From Thalassovita mediterranea (GTDB lineage Bacteria > Pseudomonadota > Alphaproteobacteria > Caulobacterales > Hyphomonadaceae): a stretch of DNA of 64,000 nt. The stretch lies in the NCBI GenBank assembly GCA_019448215.1, contig CP080408.1:2108001-2172000 (forward strand). The letters are read 5' to 3'. The translations under genes and the position numbers were made by a program. Below are positions 9,614-50,649 of this stretch, in pieces. Numbering within the stretch: the stretch's first letter is position 1; each line of letters starts with the position of its first letter. The notes beneath the pieces were generated by a model, which was not told where the DNA came from, did no database searches, and worked only from the letters and a program-made list of their open reading frames with translations.

Positions 9614-10596
9614 CGTATCTCCCTCGAATATGCCAGCGCCCGATAGGTCTTCAAGCATGCAAGTCGCAGGCCATCGGGAAGCGTAGCTGATCGCGCGCCG
9701 AAGCGTGCTAGGCCCTGCAGAAATCGGCGGGCCGGCAAGTTTCTGAATTTGCAGGCTATTCGGTACAGCTGCATCGACTTTACAGCGTCCGGATGGCGCT
9801 CTGCGAGCCGTGCAAAATTATGTCCTGAGCCGCCAAATTTGCGCAGCAGCGTATCGGTATTATCCAGTCCGAGATGCGTCGCGGTGTTGTCGATATGGCG
9901 CACGGGATAGGCTTCCACGACATTGAGGCCCCAGTCGACATCCTCCCATCCCCAGCCCTTGAAGCCATCATCAAAGGGGACGTCCTCCAGCACACGGCGG
10001 TGAACGAGGATGTTGGACGTGAAGACATAGCGTCCCGGTTCCTTTTGCCGCTCGGCCGCTGCAAGGCATTCGGACGCGAGCGACTGGGCGGCATGCAGCC
10101 GCGTCGGCGCTGTGACTTTGGCGTGCTGAAGGCTGAAGCCGCCAGCTATAAGGGAAGGGCCATCGCAGTCTCGGATCGCCGTCAGATAGCGCTCGATGAA
10201 CTTCCCATCGTCCGGCTTCATGTCGGCGTCGAGAAAGAGGATCCAGTCGCTCTCGCTAAGCTCATAGAGGCGATTGCGGGCATGCGCGCGGCCAAGATTG
10301 CCAGAGGCCGTGACGAGGCGCGCCGGTCCAGGATAAGCTTCCAGCCAGGTCTTCAGCTGGGCTGTCAGCTGCGGGTCGCCGCTGCCATCATCATAGATCA
10401 GCACGTTAGCGCGCTCGGCGCCGCCGGCCGCAGAAAGGTCAGCGATGAGCGATGAGGCATCATAGCGATAGCAGGGCACACACACGGTCAGCTCGCTCGC
10501 GCCCGCCTTGCCATTCGACCAGTGTTCTTCGCCAGGGGCGAGGTCTGCCTTGCTCATATGCTCACCCGGCAAAGTCATGAGATCACAATCTGCCAT
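9610..10596 (-). CDS. hfsG: GT2 glycosyltransferase (HfsG-like)
   Basis: This is a 328-aa GT2 glycosyltransferase. The Rossmann-like start ELTVCVPCYRYDASSLIADL is followed by LIYDDGSGD (acidic nucleotide-binding motif), DWILFLDADMKPDDGKFIE (DAD metal motif near residue 122) and GWGWEDVDWGLNVVEAYP. That last pattern is the C-terminal galactosyltransferase-like ED motif. It probably adds a hexosamine to the lipid-linked holdfast repeat. It follows the initiating transferase gene with 1 bp between stop and start, and overlaps the deacetylase gene as ATGA, so the four genes are probably one transcript. An internal ATG (residue 14) is an alternative start. Confidence 0.8.
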   Translation of the reverse strand: MADCDLMTLPGEHMSKADLAPGEEHWSNGKAGASELTVCVPCYRYDASSLIADLSAAGGAERANVLIYDDGSGDPQLTAQLKTWLEAYPGPARLVTASGNLGRAHARNRLYELSESDWILFLDADMKPDDGKFIERYLTAIRDCDGPSLIAGGFSLQHAKVTAPTRLHAAQSLASECLAAAERQKEPGRYVFTSNILVHRRVLEDVPFDDGFKGWGWEDVDWGLNVVEAYPVRHIDNTATHLGLDNTDTLLRKFGGSGHNFARLAERHPDAVKSMQLYRIACKFRNLPARRFLQGLARFGARSATLPDGLRLACLKTYRALAYSREIR

Positions 10597-40383: not shown

Positions 40384-40576
40384 GGTGTCTCTCCCTGCGG
40401 TGTATCAGACGCCTGCTCTTGCGGCGGCGTTCATCTTCCAGCGCTAGCGGGCTGACGCATGGGAGGGTCAAGCGCTGTTTTGCCCGCAGAAATAAGTTGC
40501 CGCTTGCTGGTCATCTCACTGGAATTTCGCGTTGACCTCGGCGCGCAGCAGTCCTATCAACCCGCCTTCCGAAAGT

Positions 40577-40661
40577 GCCCAGGTGGCGGAACTGGTAGAC
40601 GCGCACGGTTCAGGTCCGTGTGGAGCAATCCGTGGAGGTTCGAGTCCTCTCCTGGGCACCA
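40577..40661 (+). tRNA. tRNA-Leu (CAG)
   Basis: Acceptor stem GCCCAGG/CCTGGGC, anticodon stem CACGG/CCGTG with loop TTCAGGT (anticodon CAG), a class II variable arm, T arm GGAGGTTCGAGTCCTCT, and an encoded CCA. Its 3' end is the left attachment site of the island. Confidence 0.95.
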
Positions 40662-40662
40662 T
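40646..40662 (+). repeat. attL (tRNA-Leu 3' end)
   Basis: CCTCTCCTGGGCACCAT in the T-stem/acceptor/CCA end of tRNA-Leu is the left direct repeat of the island. Confidence 0.8.
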
Positions 40663-40753
40663 CGGAAAATCCCAAAACGTCCAATGCGGCCCTTAAAGCC
40701 TTCTAAAGTAGAGCTTTTTTGATATCAGACCCTCTCGCATTGTCCGATGCGGT

Positions 40754-40844
40754 GCGGGTATGTGCGTTGGCATGCGGGTATTTTGCGGGTAGATTTGCGG
40801 GTATCGTGGGTAAGAATACCCGCTTTGCTGACCGAGATACCCGC
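40754..40844. repeat. GCGGGTA heptamer array (integrase arm sites?)
   Basis: Four direct GCGGGTA copies (40754, 40774, 40785, 40797) and two inverted TACCCGC copies (40817, 40838) lie between attL and the integrase ATG. The last ends 1 bp before the ATG. The heptamer recurs near attR, as expected for arm-type binding sites. Occupancy would also cover the int promoter or ribosome-binding site. Confidence 0.65.
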
Positions 40845-40845
40845 A

Positions 40846-42039
40846 ATGCCGCTCACCGATATTCAACTTCGCCAGCTCAAACCGCGAGAAAAAGACTACA
40901 AGAGCGCCGACGGCGGCGGTCTATATGTTCACGTCAGCAAGACCGGCTCACGGCTTTGGCGGCTACGCTATCGCTTTGATGGCAAGGAAAAGCTTTTGGC
41001 CTTCGGGGCATATCCGGCGATCAGTCTGGCGCGGGCGCGAGAGCTTCGGGCAGAAGCCAAAGCCCTCCTGGCTGAGGGCATAGATCCCGGCGCGCACGCG
41101 AAGGCGCAGAAGGCAGCGCAAGAAGCGGTCACCGAACACACCTTCTCGAAGATAGCCGCAGAACTGCTGGAGAAGCTGCGTAAAGAAGGCAAGGCGGACG
41201 TCACGCTTTCGAAGAAACAATGGCTCCTGGATATGGCGAATGCCGCTTTTGGTAATCGACCCATAACAGCGATTACGGCCGCTGATATCTTGAAGCCGCT
41301 TGAGAAGGTGCAAGACAAAGGCAATTACGAAACCGCCAGACGCTTGCGCTCCACAATCGGGCAAGTGTTTCGATATGCCATTGCGACCGCGAAGGCAGAA
41401 AACGATCCCACATTTGGTTTGAGAGGTGCGCTGATCACGCCAAGGGTCTCGCACATGGCAGCGATTACAGACTGGGACGGCTTTGCAGCGCTCCTGAAAG
41501 CCATCTGGATTTATGACGGCGGTTCACCCTCAACACGCGCCGCTTTGAAGCTGATGGCGCTCCTGTACACGCGCCCAGGCGAAATGCGGTTGGCGTTGTG
41601 GGAAGAGTTCGATCTTGAGCGCGCTATCTGGACCATTCCAGCGGATCGCACAAAGATGCGTCGGGAGCATGTGAAGCCATTGCCTCCTCTCGCAGTCGAG
41701 ATTCTTCAAGGTCTGCAAGTTGAAACCGGTAGCAACTACCGCGCCTTTCCGTCATCGATCGCGCGCGACAAGCCGATAAGCGAAAACACGCTTAATCAGG
41801 CGCTACGCCGCATGGGCTTTGACAAGCACGAGCACACCTCGCACGGTTTTCGAGCGAGTGCGTCCAGCTTGCTGAATGAAAGCGGTCTTTGGAATGCTGA
41901 TGCGATCGAAGCGGAGCTTGGTCATGTTGGTGCGGATGAAGTGCGTAGGGCCTATCACCGCTCGCTCTATTGGGACGAGCGCGTGAAGATGGCGAACTGG
42001 TGGGCCAGACAAATTGCACGGGAGTTTTCCACAGCCTAG
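40846..42039 (+). CDS. int: Tyrosine site-specific integrase (P4/IntS type)
   Basis: This is a 397-aa tRNA-associated integrase. The N-terminal DUF4102 arm-binding domain (MPLTDIQLRQLKPREKDYKS, with DGGGLYVHV and LLAFGAYPAISLARARE) precedes a core-binding SAM-like domain (about residues 105-190). The catalytic domain carries Arg in YTRPGEMRL, the HxxR motif HGFRAS and the nucleophile Tyr in RAYHRSLYWDERVKM. I start at the ATG giving MPLTDIQ; the frame stays open upstream for 33 codons, but that DNA is the heptamer array. It catalyses integration and excision at tRNA-Leu. Confidence 0.93.
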   Translation: MPLTDIQLRQLKPREKDYKSADGGGLYVHVSKTGSRLWRLRYRFDGKEKLLAFGAYPAISLARARELRAEAKALLAEGIDPGAHAKAQKAAQEAVTEHTFSKIAAELLEKLRKEGKADVTLSKKQWLLDMANAAFGNRPITAITAADILKPLEKVQDKGNYETARRLRSTIGQVFRYAIATAKAENDPTFGLRGALITPRVSHMAAITDWDGFAALLKAIWIYDGGSPSTRAALKLMALLYTRPGEMRLALWEEFDLERAIWTIPADRTKMRREHVKPLPPLAVEILQGLQVETGSNYRAFPSSIARDKPISENTLNQALRRMGFDKHEHTSHGFRASASSLLNESGLWNADAIEAELGHVGADEVRRAYHRSLYWDERVKMANWWARQIAREFSTA

Positions 42040-42150
42040 GATTTTGCTTTGCATGGGCGGAACATAAAAAGTACGCTTGAAACAAAACTGTCACAAAAGG
42101 ACCATACGGTACGCTATAGGTTGTTATGGGATCGGCTAGGAGCACCAGAT

Positions 42151-42873
42151 ATGGGCGTGAAGCATTGCCTGGAGGACTTTGAAAGCCAAGGGGCAGACTG
42201 GGACCCGGTTTTCGATAACGCGCCTATAGATGCGTGGTCGCGGTATCGAAACGTCTCGAAATTCTGGCTTCTTTCTGATGAACTGAAGGTGCAAGACGCG
42301 GCGCTTCTGGTTCTGGGTCTCGAGCCGCAGTTGGCGCGTTATAAGGTTGACCGTTGCGTTGATAAGGACCTTCCGAGTGGATACGAGGCAATATTGTCAG
42401 CCCTCAGAGCGGCCATAAAAGGCGGCAAAGTAGAGGGTCTCGTTCTGCCTTGCTATGAAGAGGTATATCCGGAAGGCATCGAAGAGGTGAAGGACTCAAT
42501 GGACGCAAGAAGTTCTTGGGTGTGCAGAGAGAGTTTAATGGCATGGCTTGAAAGTTGCGGCCTGACGGATTGCTTCTTTTTTCAGGACCGCCGGAATAGA
42601 GCTGCTTTCAGTGACCCGGCACACGCGCGGTACTCCGCAAAGCTTGCGGCAGTGGTGGAGGCTTGGCAGTCATTCGACGAGAACTCAGTTGAGCCTGGCA
42701 CCGTGAAGCAGCGTTTAGCAAAGTGGCTCAGGTTGAATGCTGCCCGTTTTGGGCTCACCAATGAAGATGGAAATCCGAGCGAATCCGTTATTGAGGAACT
42801 CGCCAAAGTTGCAAATTGGGCGACCTCCGGAGGCGCTCCAAGGCAAATGGGCGAAAATTCTATCCCATTTTAA
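42151..42873 (+). CDS. Unknown island protein
   Basis: I do not recognise this 240-aa protein. The start ATG follows AGGAG with an 8-nt spacer (42138-42142). It is soluble and mixed-charge, with Trp-rich helices: KFWLLSDELKVQDAALLVLG, SSWVCRESLMAWLESCGLTD and VKQRLAKWLRLNAARFGLTN. The C-terminal part resembles the helical tail often seen in integrase-adjacent island proteins. No signal peptide, membrane segment or catalytic motif is visible. Position directly after int suggests an excision, regulation or accessory role, but this is only context. Confidence 0.65.
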   Translation: MGVKHCLEDFESQGADWDPVFDNAPIDAWSRYRNVSKFWLLSDELKVQDAALLVLGLEPQLARYKVDRCVDKDLPSGYEAILSALRAAIKGGKVEGLVLPCYEEVYPEGIEEVKDSMDARSSWVCRESLMAWLESCGLTDCFFFQDRRNRAAFSDPAHARYSAKLAAVVEAWQSFDENSVEPGTVKQRLAKWLRLNAARFGLTNEDGNPSESVIEELAKVANWATSGGAPRQMGENSIPF

Positions 42874-43048
42874 TTTTCGCGCTATTTCAATGTATTATGC
42901 GCTCCGCCGCTGTGTATCTTCTAAGGTTTTGAGTCAAGCCAGCAATAGGTTGTCGTCTTACCTGGTCTGAACTTTCTGAAACCGTGGGGCCTATTATCAC
43001 CGGCCTCTACGCTGGACTTTATTGTCACCGCAAAGACGGAGACAAACT

Positions 43049-43255
43049 ATGTTCCACCATTCCGAACTTCCTGAAACGGGCTTCCTTCGCCTGAAGTCCA
43101 TCCTCGCGCCTCATGGTCCCATCCCTGTCAGCAAATCGACTTGGTGGGCTGGTGTGAAAGACGGGCGCTTTCCGCAGCCGAAGAAGCTGGGCGCACGCGT
43201 GACCGTCTGGCGTGTCGAAGACATTCGTGAGCTGATCGAGAAGGGCGCGGCTTAG
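43049..43255 (+). CDS. AlpA-family excisionase/regulator
   Basis: This 68-aa protein has the AlpA/MerR-like winged HTH layout. GFLRLKSILAPHGPIPVSKS continues into TWWAGVKDGRFPQPKKLGARVTVWRVEDIRELIEKG, whose FPxPxKLGxRxxxWxxxDI pattern is diagnostic of AlpA. GGAG lies upstream of the ATG. AlpA proteins activate integrase expression or act as directionality factors for P4-like elements, which fits an island with a P4-type integrase. Confidence 0.85.
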   Translation: MFHHSELPETGFLRLKSILAPHGPIPVSKSTWWAGVKDGRFPQPKKLGARVTVWRVEDIRELIEKGAA

Positions 43256-43277
43256 TTGCCGGGTAGGAGCGGCTGCT

Positions 43278-43694
43278 TTGTCCTATGCTCTATTTTCAGT
43301 TCGTCGAAAGGATCTTCCACACGCGCGGATTTATGACCACTATCTTGAACATGCATCATGGAGAGAGCTTTCGCCGTTTGCATTCAAGGCAATCGTTATG
43401 CTGATGGCTAGCTATCGGCCAGACCAAGCAAATGTCTTCCCAGTGGGCGAAAGCCGCATGGCTGAAACGATCGGATGCGCGCCTGCGACTGCCAAAAATG
43501 CGATTGATGAGTTGATTGAAGGCGGTTTTCTTAAGCTTGAACAAAAAGGCCGCAACAGAGGCAAGGCGTCGGGCCGGGAAAGGATCGTTTCGCTGACGCA
43601 GTACGACACAGAGACGAGCGTTGGCGATCCGAGTTTGCCCGTGAAGACCTGGCAGCGGAAGCAAAAGTCGGCACACCTTAAATCTGTGGTGTGA
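43278..43694 (+). CDS. HTH-domain island protein
   Basis: This 138-aa protein probably starts at TTG with AGGAG about 9 nt upstream. The central helices ELSPFAFKAIVMLMASYRPD and VFPVGESRMAETIGCAPATAKNAIDELIEGGFLKLEQKG form a winged helix-turn-helix like those in plasmid and island replication or regulatory proteins. The C-terminus is basic (KTWQRKQKSAHLKS). It is the third small gene downstream of int. A role in replication or transcription control of the island is plausible but not demonstrated. Confidence 0.62.
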   Translation: MSYALFSVRRKDLPHARIYDHYLEHASWRELSPFAFKAIVMLMASYRPDQANVFPVGESRMAETIGCAPATAKNAIDELIEGGFLKLEQKGRNRGKASGRERIVSLTQYDTETSVGDPSLPVKTWQRKQKSAHLKSVV

Positions 43695-43729
43695 ACGCCT
43701 ACAATCTGATGCGTCTGACGAGAACTGGG

Positions 43730-43852
43730 CATGCTGGTGAACCTGAGAAAACCTAAGCTACAGCAAGTGTTTAATCGAGATGTAGCTGGAGCCAGTAATT
43801 CCCGTTCGAACCATATAGCGTTGCAGCAGACATGCTGAACCTGACAAAACCT
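43730..43852. repeat. Imperfect direct repeat pair in the island
   Basis: CATGCTGGTGAACCTGAGAA followed by AACCT (43730-43754) recurs as CATGCTGAACCTGACAAAAC followed by CT (43831-43852), about 100 bp apart in a 274-bp non-coding gap. Downstream is a GC-rich hairpin CCGCTC-ACAC-GAGCGG (about 43876-43891). It may be a control or origin site. Confidence 0.4.
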
Positions 43853-43968
43853 GACGCTGAGCCTAACGCCGCCCCGCCGCTCACACGAGCGGGGCAAGGC
43901 GGGCGGCGGTCCAGTAAGGTCCCGACACATCCACTTCCCACATGATTGCGAAAACCGAGGACTGACAC

Positions 43969-44565
43969 ATGGGCGGATACGGATCTGGAAGACATGCGCG
44001 ATGCGCCGCCAGGAGCGATCAGTTTCATAAGCTGGATCTGGCGGACTTTCCCCGTGAATGGTTTCAGCGTCACCTGTCCGGCACGGTCACTTGGTCACGC
44101 GGTGATCATAAGACCGGCAGCGTTGGCTACCGCCTGTCGCCCGATCGCATGGTGTTGCGCTACAGCGTGCCGAAAGATGGCGAGCGCCAGCACATAGAGG
44201 AAAGCTTTGTCATGTGCCCAACTGAGCAGCCGCTAGGCGGGCAGCGTTGGTGGATTGAGTGCAATGGTTGCGGACGCCAATGCAGGGTACTCTATGGCGC
44301 GACATACTTCCGCTGCAGGCAATGCCGCCGCCTCACCTACGAAAGCCAATATGAGCGCATCTATGCCCCTGGCGTGACCCGTGCGATGCGCGTGCGCAAG
44401 AAGCTGAAGGGTGAGATTGGTCTCGCCTATGCTTTCCCCGATCGTCCTAAGGGCATGCATTGGAAGACCTATTACCGGCTGCAGGAGGCGGACTGGGCAG
44501 CGCAGATACGGATTGATGCTGTACTCGCACAAAGCGTTTTAAGGTTGGGGCGAAAGCGGTCGTAG
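43969..44565 (+). CDS. MGGYGSGR-type zinc-ribbon protein
   Basis: This 198-aa protein starts MGGYGSGRHARCAARSDQFH, an N-terminus that recurs in uncharacterised proteins on proteobacterial mobile elements. The middle has a probable zinc ribbon: WWIECNGCGRQCRVLYGATY followed by FRCRQCRRLTYESQYE (Cys pairs CxxC and CxxC). A basic region RAMRVRKKLKGEIG and helical tail with WKTYYRLQ follow. The zinc ribbon and basic surface suggest nucleic-acid binding. It sits immediately before the Type III R-M genes in the same direction, 272 bp away. Function unknown. Confidence 0.72.
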   Translation: MGGYGSGRHARCAARSDQFHKLDLADFPREWFQRHLSGTVTWSRGDHKTGSVGYRLSPDRMVLRYSVPKDGERQHIEESFVMCPTEQPLGGQRWWIECNGCGRQCRVLYGATYFRCRQCRRLTYESQYERIYAPGVTRAMRVRKKLKGEIGLAYAFPDRPKGMHWKTYYRLQEADWAAQIRIDAVLAQSVLRLGRKRS

Positions 44566-44837
44566 GGGGGGCATGGCAATCTCTGAGACTACAAGCGCTA
44601 AAACCGGCTTCATATCCTTTCCGCGCGTCTCCTCAGTTCAAGAATTGGGAGGGGGACGAAAATGTTGGAAACGTTTCCGCGCGATACCGGCGGCTTTCCG
44701 AAGTTGAAACGCTAACCCAATTTTCTCGTGCGCGTGCGCAAGAGGACGCAGCTAACTCAAAGATTGAGACTTGAAGGCGTTGCGGCTTTGGCCTTCGATG
44801 ATTTCGCACGTTCCTAAAGCCAAGAAGCGATTCCTTC

Positions 44838-46745
44838 ATGCAAAACCTTCTCGATGACCTGACAGAACTTCTCCAGGCCGAACAGGCATTCATCTCGGAT
44901 GGGGCGATCCTCAAGAATGCGGTGATCGAGGCGGCGCTGAACATGGATGCTCGCTTGTTGGAATTGCTGATGCAGTCCGACACAATCAAGGCGCATTTTT
45001 TTACGCCGGTGGCGGGCGCGCTGGTCTTCGACAAGGTGAAGTTTCAGGACTTCGTGTCCAACAAAGCCTTCTTGCCCGACAGCTACACTGCCTTCAAGAA
45101 CCGGATCGGCCTGACGGATGGGCGCGGCGATTACCTGAGCCAATCGCGCGACGTGGTGCTGGCGTGGCCCTATAAGGACTGCGTGCTGGAAGGCGGCATG
45201 ACGAAAGAGGACCGGGGCCGCAACGAGGTGTTCTGGAACACGACGTTGGCCCCCGATGACATTACGCGGCTGTTTGAACCCAAGGCGCTGACCGGCTGGG
45301 AACGCTGGGATGCGGAGGCCGTGGCAGAGGGCAAGGCCAAGCCCGTGGGCGCGGTGTCGGAGGACGACAACCTGCTTATCAAGGGCAACAATCTGCTGGC
45401 GCTGTATTCGCTGAAAGCGCGCTATGCCGGTAAGGTGAAGCTGATCTATATCGACCCGCCCTATAATACCGGCAACGACGGGTTCCGGTACAATGACCGC
45501 TTCAACCATTCTGCATGGCTGACGTTTATGCGGAACCGGCTTGAGGTGGCGAAAGAGTTGCTAAGCCGGGATGGCACGATCTTCGTCAATTTGGACGATG
45601 GCGAGGCGCACTATTGCAAAGTGATGATGGACGACTTGTTTGGACGTGAGAACTTCATCGCAAACTTCGTTTGGGAGAAGGCGGACAGTCCCCGTATGGA
45701 TGCCATTCACGTGTCAAGTCGTCATGACCACATCTTGGCCTACGCGAAAGACAAGGAGCGAGCGCACTGGAAGCACCTGCAAGTTAGTGATGAGGACATT
45801 GGGGAACATTATACGAAGCAAGACGAAAAAGGCCGAAAATATTATACTAAGCCGCTGAGGGCGATGGGTGGGCAAGGTGACACCAGAGTAGCACGCCCAA
45901 ACCTGTATTACGCCTTGACTGCACCGGATGGCACAGAGGTTTTCCCGGTTCGGCAAGATGGGCGGGACGGTGCTTGGCGGTGGAGTAGAGGTAAATCTCA
46001 GAGCGAGGCTGATCGTATTGAGTGGGTGTCAAATGATGGTAACTGGACACCTTATTACCGGATTTATGCTGACCAAAATAGCACTCGTCCGCCGGAGACC
46101 ATTTGGTTTAACGCAGACGTAGGAGGAAACCGAACTTCTCGGTCCGAGGCCAAAGGGCTATTCGGGGATGCAGACTTTTCCATAACGCCGAAGCCAGAAA
46201 AACTCTTGCGCCGCATAATCGAGATAGCAACGGACGCTGGCGATACTGTTTTGGATTTCTTTTCAGGTTCTGGAACGACACCTTCGGTGGCTCATAAGTT
46301 GGGTAGAAAATGGCTTGCCGTGGAGCAGATGGACTACATCCTTGATCTACCAAACTCACGCCTCAAGAAAGTCGTCGCAGGGGAACAGGGCGGTATCTCT
46401 AAAGCTGTCGAGTGGCAAGGCGGCGGATCGTTTGTCTATGCCGAACTCGCGGCCTCCAATTCCGCATTTGCTGACCGTATTGAAGCGGCGCCGGACATGG
46501 CAGCGCTACAAGCCATACATGCCGACATCCAAGCCACCGGCTATCTGCGCTATGACGTTGATCTGAGCGCCTTCGACACCGACGACTTCGCCGTACTTCC
46601 ATTGGACGACGCCAAGCGCGTGTTGATGGACTGCCTCGATGCCAACCACCTGTGTGTCAATCTGGGTTCTCTAGGGGATGCGGACTTTAACATCTCCGAC
46701 GAAGACGCCCGCGCGACCCGCTCTTTCTATGGGCTGGACGCATGA
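44838..46745 (+). CDS. mod: Type III restriction-modification methyltransferase
   Basis: This is a 635-aa beta-class N6-adenine methyltransferase, the modification and recognition subunit of a Type III system. Catalytic motif IV DPPYNTGNDGF is near residue 206 and precedes the SAM-binding motif I VLDFFSGSGTTPSVAHKLGRKW near residue 472, the beta-class order. The intervening region (about 280-440) is the target-recognition domain and its DNA is visibly more AT-rich than both flanks. The stop overlaps the res start as ATGA. Methylation of one strand of an asymmetric site is expected. Confidence 0.93.
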   Translation: MQNLLDDLTELLQAEQAFISDGAILKNAVIEAALNMDARLLELLMQSDTIKAHFFTPVAGALVFDKVKFQDFVSNKAFLPDSYTAFKNRIGLTDGRGDYLSQSRDVVLAWPYKDCVLEGGMTKEDRGRNEVFWNTTLAPDDITRLFEPKALTGWERWDAEAVAEGKAKPVGAVSEDDNLLIKGNNLLALYSLKARYAGKVKLIYIDPPYNTGNDGFRYNDRFNHSAWLTFMRNRLEVAKELLSRDGTIFVNLDDGEAHYCKVMMDDLFGRENFIANFVWEKADSPRMDAIHVSSRHDHILAYAKDKERAHWKHLQVSDEDIGEHYTKQDEKGRKYYTKPLRAMGGQGDTRVARPNLYYALTAPDGTEVFPVRQDGRDGAWRWSRGKSQSEADRIEWVSNDGNWTPYYRIYADQNSTRPPETIWFNADVGGNRTSRSEAKGLFGDADFSITPKPEKLLRRIIEIATDAGDTVLDFFSGSGTTPSVAHKLGRKWLAVEQMDYILDLPNSRLKKVVAGEQGGISKAVEWQGGGSFVYAELAASNSAFADRIEAAPDMAALQAIHADIQATGYLRYDVDLSAFDTDDFAVLPLDDAKRVLMDCLDANHLCVNLGSLGDADFNISDEDARATRSFYGLDA

Positions 46746-49372
46746 GCCAGACCCTTACCGAACAGATTGACGCAGTTGCCAAGTTTGGGATGCTCAAGGC
46801 CAACATCCCCGACGACGTTACCGGTAATCTAGCGTCCAAGATCAAGTTGCGCCCATATCAGCGCACGGCGCTGGAACGCTGGCTGTTCTACATCGACAAA
46901 TACGACGCGCGCCCCAAGGCCCCGCACTTGCTGTTCCACATGGCCACGGGCAGCGGCAAGACGGTGCTGATGGCGGCGCTGATCCTAGATTTGTATCAGC
47001 GCGGCTATCGCAACTTCCTGTTCTTCGTGAACTCCGCCCAGATCATCGAGAAGACCAAGGACAACTTCCTCAACCCCGCATCGGCCAAGCACCTGTTCGC
47101 GCCAACAGTGCGGATTGATAACAAGCCCGTGGATATCCGCGCAGTGGACACCTTCGACGCGGTGAACACGGACGCGATCAACATCCACTTCACCACCATT
47201 CAAGGGCTGCACACAAGGATGCAGGCCCCAAAAGAGAACGCCGTCACAATCGAAGACTTCCGCGATTACAAGGTGGTGATGATCTCGGACGAAGCACACC
47301 ACCTGAACGCCGAGACCAAGAAGACGCTGACGCAAGGCGAGAAGGCAGAGAAGGCCAGTTGGGAAGGCACGGTATCCGAGATTTTCCGCCAGCACCCAGA
47401 AAACATGCTGTTGGAGTTTACCGCGACGGTGGACCTGAGCCATGAGGCGATACGGGCGAAGTATGCCGACAAGATACTTTACGACTACTCGCTGCGGCAG
47501 TTTCGGGAAGACGGCTATTCCAAGGACATCGAGTTGCGGCAGGCCGATTTGCCACCCGAGGCCCGGATGATGCAGGCGATGGTCCTGAGCCAATACCGCC
47601 GCAAGGTGGCCGAGGCGCATGGGCTGCATTGTAAGCCGGTGATCCTGATGAAGTCCAAGACGATCAAGGAAAGCGCCGACAACGAAGCCGCATTCACGGC
47701 GATGGTCGCGGGACTGACGGGCGAGGCGCTCGAAGCGCTTAGGGCGGCTTCTGGGGGCGATGAGACCCTTTCGCGAGCCTTCGCCTTCATCATGGATGAA
47801 AGGGACATGAGCGGAGCGGATTTCGCCCGTGAGCTAAAGGGCGATTTTGCGCCCGAGAAGGTGGTGAACGTCAACAACCCCAAGGATTTGGAAAACAGAC
47901 AAATAGAACTCAACGCCTTGGAGGACCGTGACAACGAGATACGGGTGATCTTCGCCGTCGATAAGCTGAACGAAGGCTGGGACGTACTAAACCTGTTTGA
48001 CATTGTGCGCCTGTACGACACTCGCGACGGGAAGGCCAACAAAGTGGGCAAGACCACGATGGCCGAGGCTCAGTTGATCGGACGCGGAGCGAGGTACTTC
48101 CCCTTCGTGGCTCCGAACCAGCCTGACGCGGTTCAGGAAAAGCGCAAGTACGATAGCGCGATCGAGCATCCTCTAAGAATACTGGAAGAGCTTCACTATC
48201 ACTGCTCCCACAACCCGAAATACATCCTAGACATCCGAAATGCCCTTCGCGAAACGGGTATGCTGGATGAGGCGGCGAGAACTGTATCGCTAAAGCTGAA
48301 AGCGAGCTTCAAGGACACAGACTTCTACAAGTCGGAATTTGTCTGGCTGAATGAGCGAAAAGCCAATTCGAGAGAAGGTATTTGCGAGCTGCAGGCATAC
48401 CAAGTCGGGACACAATTTTCTTACCCCACACTAATGACCGGCCGCATTACAGAGAGCTCTGCTTTCGGTGGGGCGCAGCCAGGCTCTGAGAAGGCTGGAG
48501 AAGAGCCCGTTTCCAGAGAGTTCAAGCTTTCGGACTTTGGGCGACCAATCTTGCAGTTCGCATTGGACGCGAACGCATTTTTTCACTTCAGCAAACTTCG
48601 CTCCTACTTCCCGGAGCTGCAGGGCATTGCTGAGTTCATGACAACGCAAAGCTATTTGGGCGGCGTCACCGTCAGCGTGCGTGGCCTGCCGTCCGATTTG
48701 GCAAACCTACGGGCCGGTCAAAAGCTTGAAATAACCCAATATATCCTCAACCAGATAGAGGCCGGTATCAAGCGTGAGAGTATCGACTTTGTAGGCACGA
48801 GGGATTTCAAGCCTCACCTCATCCGTGAGCGCTTCATCGACACCAGACTAAAACTTCGCTTGGAAGGTGAAACGGGCCGCAGCTGGGCGGAAAGTGAGAT
48901 TCCGGGGCTCGATCAGATCGATCTGAATAGCAAGGACTGGCATGCCTACGATGACTGCTATGGCACCGATCAGGAGAAGCACTTCGTAAAATTCATGCAC
49001 GATCAGGCCGAACGGTTGATGGATCTCTATGAAGAGTTCTATCTTCTTAGGAATGAGAAGGCTGTAAAGGTCTACGCTTTTAGGGACGGGCGAGCTTTTG
49101 AGCCGGACTTTCTGCTATTCCTGAAGAAGAAAGGGGCAGCTAAGGCGACCATGATGCAGCTGTTCATAGAGCCTAAGGGACAGCACCTGCTCCAAGACGA
49201 TGCGTGGAAAGCGGATTTCCTGTCGGACGTGCACAAGGAAGCGCGGATTGAACTGGTCACTCAAAGCAAGGACTACGCGGTCTATGGCCTGCCATTCTTC
49301 AACGAAACAGGCGCGACCAACAAGACGTTCAAGGATGCATTTGAGCCATTCTTAGAGACGAATGGCGAGTAA
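46742..49372 (+). CDS. res: Type III restriction endonuclease subunit
   Basis: This is an 876-aa SF2 helicase-nuclease. Walker A is MATGSGKTVLMAALILDLYQ near residue 75, motif II is ISDEAHHLN near 181, and further helicase motifs are LEFTATVDLSHEA and TMAEAQLIGRGARYFPF. The C-terminal PD-(D/E)xK nuclease is seen in FEPDFLLFLKKKGAAK followed by LFIEPKGQHLL. It forms a complex with Mod and cleaves unmodified DNA after ATP-driven communication between sites. The last third (from about 48150) has lower GC codon choice than the first two thirds. The frame is intact. Confidence 0.93.
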   Translation: MSQTLTEQIDAVAKFGMLKANIPDDVTGNLASKIKLRPYQRTALERWLFYIDKYDARPKAPHLLFHMATGSGKTVLMAALILDLYQRGYRNFLFFVNSAQIIEKTKDNFLNPASAKHLFAPTVRIDNKPVDIRAVDTFDAVNTDAINIHFTTIQGLHTRMQAPKENAVTIEDFRDYKVVMISDEAHHLNAETKKTLTQGEKAEKASWEGTVSEIFRQHPENMLLEFTATVDLSHEAIRAKYADKILYDYSLRQFREDGYSKDIELRQADLPPEARMMQAMVLSQYRRKVAEAHGLHCKPVILMKSKTIKESADNEAAFTAMVAGLTGEALEALRAASGGDETLSRAFAFIMDERDMSGADFARELKGDFAPEKVVNVNNPKDLENRQIELNALEDRDNEIRVIFAVDKLNEGWDVLNLFDIVRLYDTRDGKANKVGKTTMAEAQLIGRGARYFPFVAPNQPDAVQEKRKYDSAIEHPLRILEELHYHCSHNPKYILDIRNALRETGMLDEAARTVSLKLKASFKDTDFYKSEFVWLNERKANSREGICELQAYQVGTQFSYPTLMTGRITESSAFGGAQPGSEKAGEEPVSREFKLSDFGRPILQFALDANAFFHFSKLRSYFPELQGIAEFMTTQSYLGGVTVSVRGLPSDLANLRAGQKLEITQYILNQIEAGIKRESIDFVGTRDFKPHLIRERFIDTRLKLRLEGETGRSWAESEIPGLDQIDLNSKDWHAYDDCYGTDQEKHFVKFMHDQAERLMDLYEEFYLLRNEKAVKVYAFRDGRAFEPDFLLFLKKKGAAKATMMQLFIEPKGQHLLQDDAWKADFLSDVHKEARIELVTQSKDYAVYGLPFFNETGATNKTFKDAFEPFLETNGE

Positions 49373-49408
49373 ATAACGCTCCGAACCGGCAGAGCACCCA
49401 AGATTATT

Positions 49409-49427
49409 GCGGGTACATTTGCGGGTA
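49409..49427. repeat. GCGGGTA pair near attR
   Basis: Two direct GCGGGTA copies (49409-49415, 49421-49427) spaced as in TTGCGGGTA-N5-GCGGGTA at 40784-40803. They are the right-end counterparts of the heptamer array next to int. Confidence 0.65.
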
Positions 49428-49488
49428 TTTTGACAGACGACTTTCTAAATATCCAAATTAATCAAGAGATTGATTGGTGGGTTTGATG

Positions 49489-49504
49489 CCTCTCCTGGCA
49501 CCAT
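49489..49504 (+). repeat. attR (imperfect copy of tRNA-Leu end)
   Basis: CCTCTCCTGGCACCAT matches attL except for one missing G (CCTGG-CACC). It marks the right edge of the island. Flanks differ from the tRNA outside this block. Confidence 0.78.
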
Positions 49505-49623
49505 TTTCGGGTTTGTTTTCCTTGATAATTCAGCTGCTTGCGCTGGGGCATCGGCCCGGCGTGAATTGTGGTATACTTTCGTGAGAGCCGCTTTTGCGGG
49601 TCGCTGTACAGTTTCGTCAGAGT

Positions 49624-50649
49624 ATGCGCAGGCCGATGTCCAGAGCATTTGTAGAGATCGGGGATATCCAGCCGCTCGTTGATGCAGCGGTTGAGCATGG
49701 CGTCGATCTTGCGCCTTTCATTCAGCGCTCAGACGAGGGCGGCGACGCCAGGATCGAGATTGCTGACTATTTCCGCATCCAGAGATCGCTGGCGCTCGCG
49801 TCTGACGACCTCACGGCGGTCATCTCCAGCCGGAAGCTGACCTTCAAGACCGGCCAGTTTCTCATCGCACAGATGCAGAATGCCACCTCGCTCATGGCGA
49901 CGATCGAGATCCTCGCTGAGCATATGAACATGATGCATGGTGACACGTATAACTCGGTCCGGTTCGGCGATAGCCGCCTGGCCCTGATCATTGATGACAG
50001 TCATTTTCCGTATCGCTCGCGTGAGAATACTGACTTCGTCGAGCTGGTCGGCGATTGCCTGACGATCAAGATCCACTGCCTGCTGGACAGTCTGACCGAA
50101 GGGGCAGCGAGTGCGGCGCTACGGCGGATCAAGCTCAAGCGACGGCGAGGCGAGACGCGCCGGCCGCAGAACGCATTCTGGTCGGTACCACTCGAGTATG
50201 GCGCGCCAGCCTATGAGCTGATCTACGATTTCGACCTTGCCTGCGCACCGCTTCAGATCCGCGAAACTGTCGATATGAGTACGGACGGACTGTTCTCGCG
50301 CGTCATCAGCCACCTTGATGCGCGCGAAGCGATTGACGGAGAGCGCAGCATTGCGGCGCGTACGCGTGATTTGCTGGAGGATGGTCTTTCGCGCCAGTCT
50401 GACGTGGCCCGAAAGCTGGATATCAGCGTCGCAACACTGCGCCGGCGCCTCTCGGAAGAGGGGGTCCAGTTCCGCGATCTCTTGCTTGAGACACGCCTCC
50501 TGCGCGCTGAAGGCATGCTGAAACGGGGCGCCTCCGTGGCACAGGCGACCGAGGCGCTGGATTATTCCGACATCCGCGCTTTCAACCGCGCCTTCAAGCG
50601 CTGGAAGGGGAAGACGCCCGCCGCGTTTGCGCAGGATTTCCAGTCCTGA
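49624..50649 (+). CDS. AraC-family regulator (arabinose-binding-like N-domain)
   Basis: This is a 341-aa regulator of the group with a long N-terminal ligand domain (about residues 1-200) and a C-terminal AraC HTH. The N-domain includes FIQRSDEGGDARIEIADYFR and MATIEILAEHMNMMHGDTYN. The HTH reads QSDVARKLDISVATLRRRLS, then EDLLLETRLLRA-like helices (RDLLLETRLLRAEGML), and EALDYSDIRAFNRAFKRWKGKTPAAF. Members of this group commonly control fatty-acid, alkane or sterol-type acyl catabolism. It is just outside the island and upstream of the TonB receptor gene, which it may activate. The ATG at 49636 is an alternative start. Confidence 0.82.
   Translation: MRRPMSRAFVEIGDIQPLVDAAVEHGVDLAPFIQRSDEGGDARIEIADYFRIQRSLALASDDLTAVISSRKLTFKTGQFLIAQMQNATSLMATIEILAEHMNMMHGDTYNSVRFGDSRLALIIDDSHFPYRSRENTDFVELVGDCLTIKIHCLLDSLTEGAASAALRRIKLKRRRGETRRPQNAFWSVPLEYGAPAYELIYDFDLACAPLQIRETVDMSTDGLFSRVISHLDAREAIDGERSIAARTRDLLEDGLSRQSDVARKLDISVATLRRRLSEEGVQFRDLLLETRLLRAEGMLKRGASVAQATEALDYSDIRAFNRAFKRWKGKTPAAFAQDFQS

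What the first reader, a model, noticed from the sequence alone, without database searches (positions are those of the whole stretch)
40646..49504. tRNA-Leu island dedicated to a Type III restriction-modification system
A P4-type integrase next to tRNA-Leu, an AlpA regulator, and mod-res between direct repeats of the tRNA end form a minimal mobile defence island of about 8.9 kb. Intact mod and res frames imply a working system. The unknown proteins between integrase and mod are the most likely place for additional defence or control functions.
Basis: partly seen in the sequence, partly recalled or inferred. Interest (0 to 1): 0.65.

Follow-up and report, generated by a model that had tools for sequence, protein, structure and literature searches.

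The report
Mobile tRNA island carrying type III restriction
A 9-kilobase mobile DNA element has inserted at the end of a leucine tRNA gene of a Henriciella-like bacterium and brought a DNA-cutting defence system; its far end lacks one base in a way that, by precedent, should damage the tRNA gene if the element ever leaves.

Summary
An ~8.8 kb island lies between tRNA-Leu(CAG) and a copy of the tRNA 3' end at 49489-49503: P4-type integrase, unknown ORF274, AlpA, a winged-helix protein, a zinc-ribbon protein (GSGR), then intact type III mod-res. One relative has the empty site (flanks 92-94% identical); another holds an unrelated element in the same tRNA. 'Same core, other cargo' succeeds: all eight related loci whose cargo I submitted carry restriction-modification-type genes, of differing types. 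Two corrections. The right copy is not an exact repeat: it lacks one base (tRNA nt 70). Random decay is unlikely: the same position is missing in 14 of 22 other loci of this integrase family with a recognisable right copy, in tRNAs with nine anticodons. This attachment-site damage is known, and in Shewanella excision of such an element spoils tmRNA; here excision should damage the only tRNA-Leu(CAG) found in the genome. Second, the unknown core proteins look like DNA-transaction or control proteins rather than extra defence; 17 of 72 ORF274 homologues, all alphaproteobacterial, end in an SSB-like C-terminal tip, which the window's copy keeps only in part. New member of a known kind.

The parts
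40577..40661 (+). tRNA-Leu(CAG), integration target (attL side); only CAG-anticodon Leu tRNA found in the genome
   Evidence: ARAGORN
40646..40662 (+). left copy of attachment core CCTCTCCTGGGCACCAT
40783..40804 (+). arm-type direct repeat, left end; inverted partial copies follow at 40815-40823 and 40837-40846
   Evidence: role inferred
40846..42039 (+). P4-type tyrosine integrase (searches used 40849-42036, without the first Met, or 40747-42036)
42049..42873 (+). ORF274, unknown core protein (possible ATG start 42151); ends GENSIPF, a partial SSB-like tip
43022..43255 (+). AlpA-type excisionase/regulator
   Evidence: Pfam; experimental precedent
43278..43694 (+). 138-aa winged-helix protein, weakly like phage replication initiators / DnaD-like loaders
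   Evidence: (below cut-off)
43969..44565 (+). GSGR protein, 198 aa, four invariant Cys (C98, C101, C116, C119), zinc-ribbon-like; no model above cut-off in the four libraries
44838..46745 (+). type III modification subunit (mod)
46742..49372 (+). type III restriction subunit (res), helicase plus PD-(D/E)xK-like motif
49407..49428 (+). arm-type direct repeat, right end
   Evidence: role inferred
49489..49504 (+). right copy of attachment core lacking one base (tRNA nt 70): CCTCTCCTGG-CACCAT

Best explanation
This is a small integrated mobile element whose P4-type tyrosine integrase inserted it at the 3' end of tRNA-Leu(CAG); AlpA most likely acts as its excisionase or activator. Its pay-load slot, between the GSGR gene and the right end, holds a type III restriction-modification pair that should methylate one strand of an asymmetric motif (m6A) and cut unmodified incoming DNA. 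The tRNA end at the right end of the island lacks nucleotide 70. By the Shewanella CP4So precedent, Int/AlpA-driven excision would join the tRNA to this damaged end and spoil the only tRNA-Leu(CAG) found in the genome, so loss of the island should be costly to the cell. Shown: anatomy, empty site, another occupant of the site, differing RM cargo behind the same core, recurrence of the one-base loss, one tRNA-Leu(CAG) gene. Inferred: activity of integrase, AlpA and RM; that excision transfers the deletion to the tRNA; that this selects for retention.
For: Empty site with 92-94% identical flanks and an intact tRNA end in G001. Same tRNA followed by a ~24.8 kb element in G012, with a 582-aa ORF that reads as a serine recombinase. 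Core genes recur beside tRNA-Leu(CAG), Leu(TAA), Thr and Phe tRNAs; in 8 of 8 loci whose cargo I submitted at least one protein matches a methyltransferase or restriction-enzyme model at E<=1e-10 (20 hand-picked proteins, 15 with a match; right end known for 5 of the 8). One base missing at a place compatible with position -7 of the right copy in 14 of 22 other loci with a right copy (13 of 21, plus L195). Precedents: Islander and CP4So. One CAG Leu tRNA found; CTG is 39% of 1422 Leu codons in window ORFs outside the island. Joining the flanks gives an 84-nt tRNA whose folded acceptor stem has a bulge (-30.7 against -37.8 kcal/mol).
Against: No excision, methylation or restriction was measured. 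ARAGORN still calls the joined product a tRNA-Leu. A tRNA-Leu(TAG) exists and may read CUG by wobble, so loss need not be lethal. 5 of 22 right copies are exact, two of them (L103, L107) in the window's own family, and 3 differ otherwise. Res has no sequence relative of known structure at E<=0.001 and no homologue at E<=1e-40 in the 298 other genomes of the order sample, so its biochemistry is by family only. If the crossover lay 3' of nt 70, excision would be harmless.
Confidence: 0.78

Rival explanations
1. The missing base is carried by the element's own attP and the crossover lies 3' of nt 70, so excision restores a normal tRNA and there is no lock-in.
For: Sequence left of the core (TTTGATG before CCTCTCC) is shared by the window, L101, L105, L106 and L197 in different genomes and so is probably element-derived; the crossover cannot be placed more closely from these data.
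Against: In Shewanella CP4So, with a P4-like integrase and AlpA, excision transfers the deletion to the RNA gene; Islander describes the deletion as lying in the tDNA fragment and places tRNA-gene crossovers in general at the anticodon loop, T loop or T/acceptor junction, all 5' of nt 70.
Confidence: 0.25
2. The island is an immobile remnant; the att deletion is decay and the RM genes are now resident genes.
For: Right copy imperfect; the window's ORF274 keeps only part of the tail seen in relatives.
Against: Integrase, AlpA, mod and res frames are all open; the deletion recurs at the same place in unrelated tRNAs; arm-like repeats remain at both ends.
Confidence: 0.12
3. An ordinary chromosomal RM locus that happens to sit by a tRNA.
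For: None found.
Against: Contiguous empty site in G001, shared core with changing cargo, lower GC.
Confidence: 0.01

Closest known systems
P4-type cryptic prophage CP4So at ssrA (Shewanella oneidensis), PMC5148205
   Same: P4-like integrase at the 3' end of an RNA gene, AlpA excisionase, one-base loss in the RNA gene on excision deduced from the two att sites (passages read)
   Different: Target there is tmRNA and damage on excision was measured; here it is tRNA-Leu, the cargo is type III RM, and excision is only predicted
Islander tDNA islands with 'damage' (148 of 3919), PMC4383910
   Same: [quoted passage not shown] nt 70 (passages and one section read)
   Different: Islander counts islands; the parts I read do not tie the damage to this core or to an RM cargo slot
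I55-type tmRNA islands of Pseudomonas / phage defence elements, PMC12595487
   Same: Tyrosine integrase, alpA, direct repeats, differing phage-defence cargo, no recognised transfer genes (passages read)
   Different: Those share a ~18 kb region with YqaJ and other genes; this core is ORF274-AlpA-wHTH-GSGR and the whole island is under 9 kb
EcoP15I and other type III RM
   Same: Mod resembles EcoP15I Mod (4zcf, 7.5e-36) and another solved Mod (6k0w, 3.9e-37); Res has type III helicase family domains
   Different: Res has no sequence match to a solved structure at E<=0.001

Membership tests
tRNA-integrated genomic island | integrase gene next to a tRNA, island bounded by tRNA and a fragment of its 3' end | tested here: met
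tRNA-integrated genomic island | empty or differently occupied site in relatives | tested here: met
   G001 empty, G012 other element
P4-type integrase family | Arm-DNA-bind_3 + Phage_int_M + catalytic domain | tested here: met
   NCBIfam PRK09692 matched below its cut-off
P4-type phage satellite | helper-dependent packaging; capsid-remodelling, primase or packaging-site functions | tested here: inconclusive
   PHROG matches of the 7 island proteins were integrases, methyltransferases, helicases and weak replication-initiator/loader or unknown families; packaging itself not testable
Type III restriction-modification | Mod N6/N4 MTase with DPPY before FxGxG and a type III N-terminal domain | tested here: met
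Type III restriction-modification | Res with SF2 helicase and PD-(D/E)xK nuclease, adjacent to mod | tested here: met
   ResIII over cut-off, PADLOC REase_III, motifs; nuclease assigned by motif only
Type III restriction-modification | methylation of an asymmetric site and cleavage between two sites | not testable with these tools
   needs methylome and assay
Islands with att damage (Williams/Islander) | deletion in tDNA fragment 3 bp upstream of the discriminator | tested here: met
   in the window the lost base lies in a run of three G, so -6 to -8 are equivalent
I55-type islands | shared YqaJ region at the 3' end besides intY and alpA | tested here: not met
   no such Pfam family among the island proteins; only 116 bases lie between res and the right core

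The most novel reading that the evidence does not exclude
ORF274, the gene next to the integrase, founds a protein family (no model in the four libraries searched) in proteobacterial tRNA islands, many of whose alphaproteobacterial members carry a mimic of the SSB C-terminal tip on a flexible tail. The mimic would let the element's probably DNA-binding protein dock on host SSB-partner proteins (such as PriA, RecO, DnaG or RecQ) during excision, replication or re-integration. Combined with att damage that makes excision costly, it would be part of how a restriction-modification island controls when it leaves.
Probability: 0.3. Interest if true: 0.65.

Novelty: new member of a known kind. Interest (0 to 1): 0.45.

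Why it matters
It shows one compact integration core standing in front of differing restriction-modification systems in Hyphomonadaceae and relatives, and gives a directly testable case of the old 'attachment-site damage' puzzle: an RM island whose departure should break what appears to be a single-copy tRNA gene. It also names two core protein families without a library model, one with an SSB-like tail in many members, that could explain how islands without transfer genes handle their own DNA.

Tried and rejected
Random decay of the right repeat was my first reading of the missing G; rejected when the same position was hit in other tRNAs. I then thought the regular deletion might be new; rejected on reading Islander and the CP4So paper. 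Extra defence in the unknown genes: no PADLOC match at E<=0.01 for ORF274, AlpA, wHTH or GSGR. ORF274 as a known fold: the model is good (pLDDT 86), but Foldseek gave no hit at E<=0.001 in PDB or BFVD; the VIA second look gave at best Z 4.1 (a phage Xis, tied with papillomavirus-type E1 and a topoisomerase chain) and Z 2.6 to a phage P2 DNA-binding protein, too weak to assign. The GSGR model is poor (pLDDT 64, 4 sequences) and was not searched. The pooled PADLOC comparison (92 ORFs downstream of ORF274 from 37 loci against 92 sampled at random from 142 upstream ORFs) gave 272 against 29 matched models. It counts overlapping models, not proteins; the first 25 models are shown for each side; the controls also held one MTase_III protein; no shown model matched more than 4 of 92 cargo ORFs; and loci with unknown right ends may include chromosomal genes. 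It is only supporting. Phage origin: viral contigs gave 1 confirmed locus for ORF274 and 2 for GSGR, and PHROGs no match for either. SSB-tip mimics in mobile elements in print: none seen among the 15 papers listed of 2,616 or the 9 listed of 9, titles and abstract starts only. This element family in print: none seen in the listings, of which only PMC12595487 was opened.

Full report
Observation. The island is real. tRNA-Leu(CAG) lies at 40577-40661 and is followed by a P4-type integrase (40846-42039), ORF274 (42049-42873), AlpA (43022-43255), a 138-aa winged-helix protein (43278-43694), a 198-aa protein beginning MGGYGSGR (43969-44565), mod (44838-46745) and res (46742-49372), all on the + strand. 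Pfam supports integrase, AlpA, mod and res above cut-off; the winged-helix and zinc-ribbon matches are below cut-off. PADLOC gives MTase_III 1.8e-172 and REase_III 4.9e-149. Catalytic motifs are present. Mod is related to EcoP15I Mod and other solved type III Mods; Res has no solved sequence relative at E<=0.001, and in the order sample only the own genome matched it at E<=1e-40 (1 of 299).

Ends. The tRNA 3' end CCTCTCCTGGGCACCAT reappears at 49489-49504 as CCTCTCCTGG-CACCAT. Within one edit it occurs once in the 20 kb scanned, and 1 of 1000 mononucleotide shuffles matched. TTGCGGGTA-type repeats stand between tRNA and integrase and again just inside the right end; similar pairs, with other sequences, occur in L103, L104, L107, L108 and L117. 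I read these as integrase arm sites (inference).

Mobility. Among 29 genomes of the genus (own one included), G001 carries both flanks joined, 94% (left) and 92% (right) identical, with a full tRNA end and no island. In G012 the same tRNA is followed by about 24.8 kb with a 582-aa serine-recombinase-like and a VirD4-like ORF; these two names are my reading of the translations, not a domain search. The genus is Henriciella-like: the contig length of G003 equals that of Henriciella barbarensis NZ_QWGB01000005.

Same core, other cargo. Homologues of ORF274 occur in 18 of 299 genomes of the order sample and of GSGR in 35 of 299, own genome included. I fetched 20 stretches around such hits. Integrase, ORF274, AlpA, winged-helix and GSGR recur in order, mostly beside tRNA-Leu(CAG), also Leu(TAA), Thr and Phe, with members missing in several loci and some loci showing GSGR alone. 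I submitted 20 hand-picked large cargo proteins of 8 of these loci to PADLOC. All 8 loci held RM-type genes: type III mod (L101), type I M and R (L102), IIG (L103), a PDC-S11 protein and type I R (L106), type I M, S, R and PDC-S05 (L107), UvrD-like helicase plus MTase (L108), type III of another subfamily (L111), type I M (L112). 15 of 20 proteins matched at E<=1e-10; the 861-aa partner of the L101 mod, two L103 proteins, one L108 and one 2008-aa L112 protein did not. A right end was found for L101, L103, L106, L107 and L108 but not for L102, L111 and L112, so for these three the cargo is placed by nearness to the core only. Where the right end is known the last cargo gene stops about 90 to 130 bp before it in L101, L103, L104, L106, L108 and the window. 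In G003 the core sits at tRNA-Thr with a different tyrosine recombinase at its far end, so integration and cargo modules seem exchangeable. A pooled comparison with upstream control ORFs (272 against 29 PADLOC models, 92 ORFs each) points the same way but counts models, not proteins.

The missing base. I searched each locus with an integrase of this family directly beside a tRNA for the last 16 tRNA bases, allowing one edit of any kind. Of 69 distinct loci (5 duplicates removed), 21 gave a right copy; the locus L149 gave one only in its longer version L195, making 22. Fourteen lack exactly one base at a place compatible with position -7 from the terminal A (tRNA nt 70), in tRNAs that ARAGORN calls Leu, Phe, Thr, Met, Gly and SeC (nine anticodons). 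In most the base lies in a short run, so the position is ambiguous by one or two; in L187 (Massilia, tRNA-Met) it is not. Five are exact (L103, L107, L199, L216, L224; L216 without shared arm repeats), one has an extra base in the same run (L201), two differ only at the outermost base (L198, L215). For 47 loci no right copy was found; some of these loci are short. The window is a further case of the deletion. [quoted passage not shown] passages and a section read), citing Williams 2003 (not held; its abstract, as I recall it, says a P4-subfamily integrase promotes damage at attachment sites, perhaps adaptively). In Shewanella oneidensis excision of the P4-like CP4So, which needs AlpA, deletes a U at the 3' end of tmRNA and abolishes its function (passages read).

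Consequence here. The genome has 43 tRNA-family matches. ARAGORN finds one Leu tRNA each with CAG, GAG, TAG, TAA and CAA; one weak match was not called by ARAGORN (L278). CTG makes up 39% of 1422 Leu codons in window ORFs outside the island. Joining the flanks as excision would do leaves an 84-nt tRNA with a bulged acceptor stem, -30.7 against -37.8 kcal/mol, which ARAGORN still recognises as a tRNA. I infer that leaving costs the cell its only tRNA-Leu(CAG); tRNA-Leu(TAG) might partly cover CUG. The undamaged empty site in G001 is then more likely ancestral than an excision scar.

Unknown core proteins. ORF274 matches nothing in Pfam (E<=0.001), NCBIfam, PHROGs or PADLOC (E<=0.01). A profile scan found 70 loci in Alpha-, Beta- and Gammaproteobacteria and one viral contig; in 37 of these 71 loci an integrase of this family lies directly upstream on the same strand. 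Seventeen of 72 distinct near-full-length members end in an SSB-like tip such as DLDDEIPF, against 0 of 4365 other six-frame ORFs of at least 100 codons in the same loci; the own SSB ends DFNQDFEDEIPF. All 17 come from alphaproteobacterial records or from genomes of the window's own order; not all alphaproteobacterial members have it (L100, L115 and others lack it), and I did not count those. Some share more of the SSB tail (GPREDFSADLDGEIPF). The window's copy ends GENSIPF and fails my rule of two acidic residues; it is the only one of 226 stop-to-stop frames of at least 100 codons in the window ending in [IVL]PF. The AlphaFold model is confident (pLDDT 86); the fold comparison was inconclusive, with weak matches that include winged-helix DNA-binding proteins such as a phage Xis at Z 4.1. 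The GSGR protein has four invariant cysteines and also occurs outside this core. My reading, an inference, is that these genes serve excision, replication or regulation, not defence.

Verdict. A new member of the known kind 'tRNA-integrated, P4-type, defence-carrying island'. Its two less ordinary aspects are the predicted cost of excision and the SSB-tailed core family; neither is demonstrated.

Noticed in passing
G012:C22 about 6281-31094 (L050, L051): The same tRNA-Leu(CAG) site holds a ~24.8 kb element with a 582-aa serine-recombinase-like ORF and a VirD4-like ORF (read from translations), so the site is used by two recombinase classes.
   Followed up: partly
L010, L011 (G003, G006) against window 40484-49629: In these relatives the flanking genes are syntenic but no tRNA-Leu match lies between them; tRNA-Leu-like matches lie elsewhere (G003:C9:4340, G006:C49:32720), suggesting the tRNA block has moved.
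   Followed up: no
L100 (G003:C11:797000-807500): Core with 92% identical GSGR protein at tRNA-Thr, a different tyrosine recombinase at the far end, and exact 29-bp att repeats.
   Followed up: partly
window 43969-44565 and L113, L118, L119: GSGR family (MGGYGSGR... zinc ribbon) occurs in loci where this core was not detected and has no library model above cut-off; function unknown.
   Followed up: partly
L201 right copy at 10390 (oriented): One island has an extra base, not a missing one, in the same run of the right tRNA copy, which might mean slippage or misjoining at that point.
   Followed up: no
L105 (G002:C32): A shortened relative: ORF274 match over residues 21-94 only, two ORFs (301 and 509 aa) where L106 has one 788-aa restriction subunit with a similar start, yet still the one-base-short right copy.
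   Followed up: no
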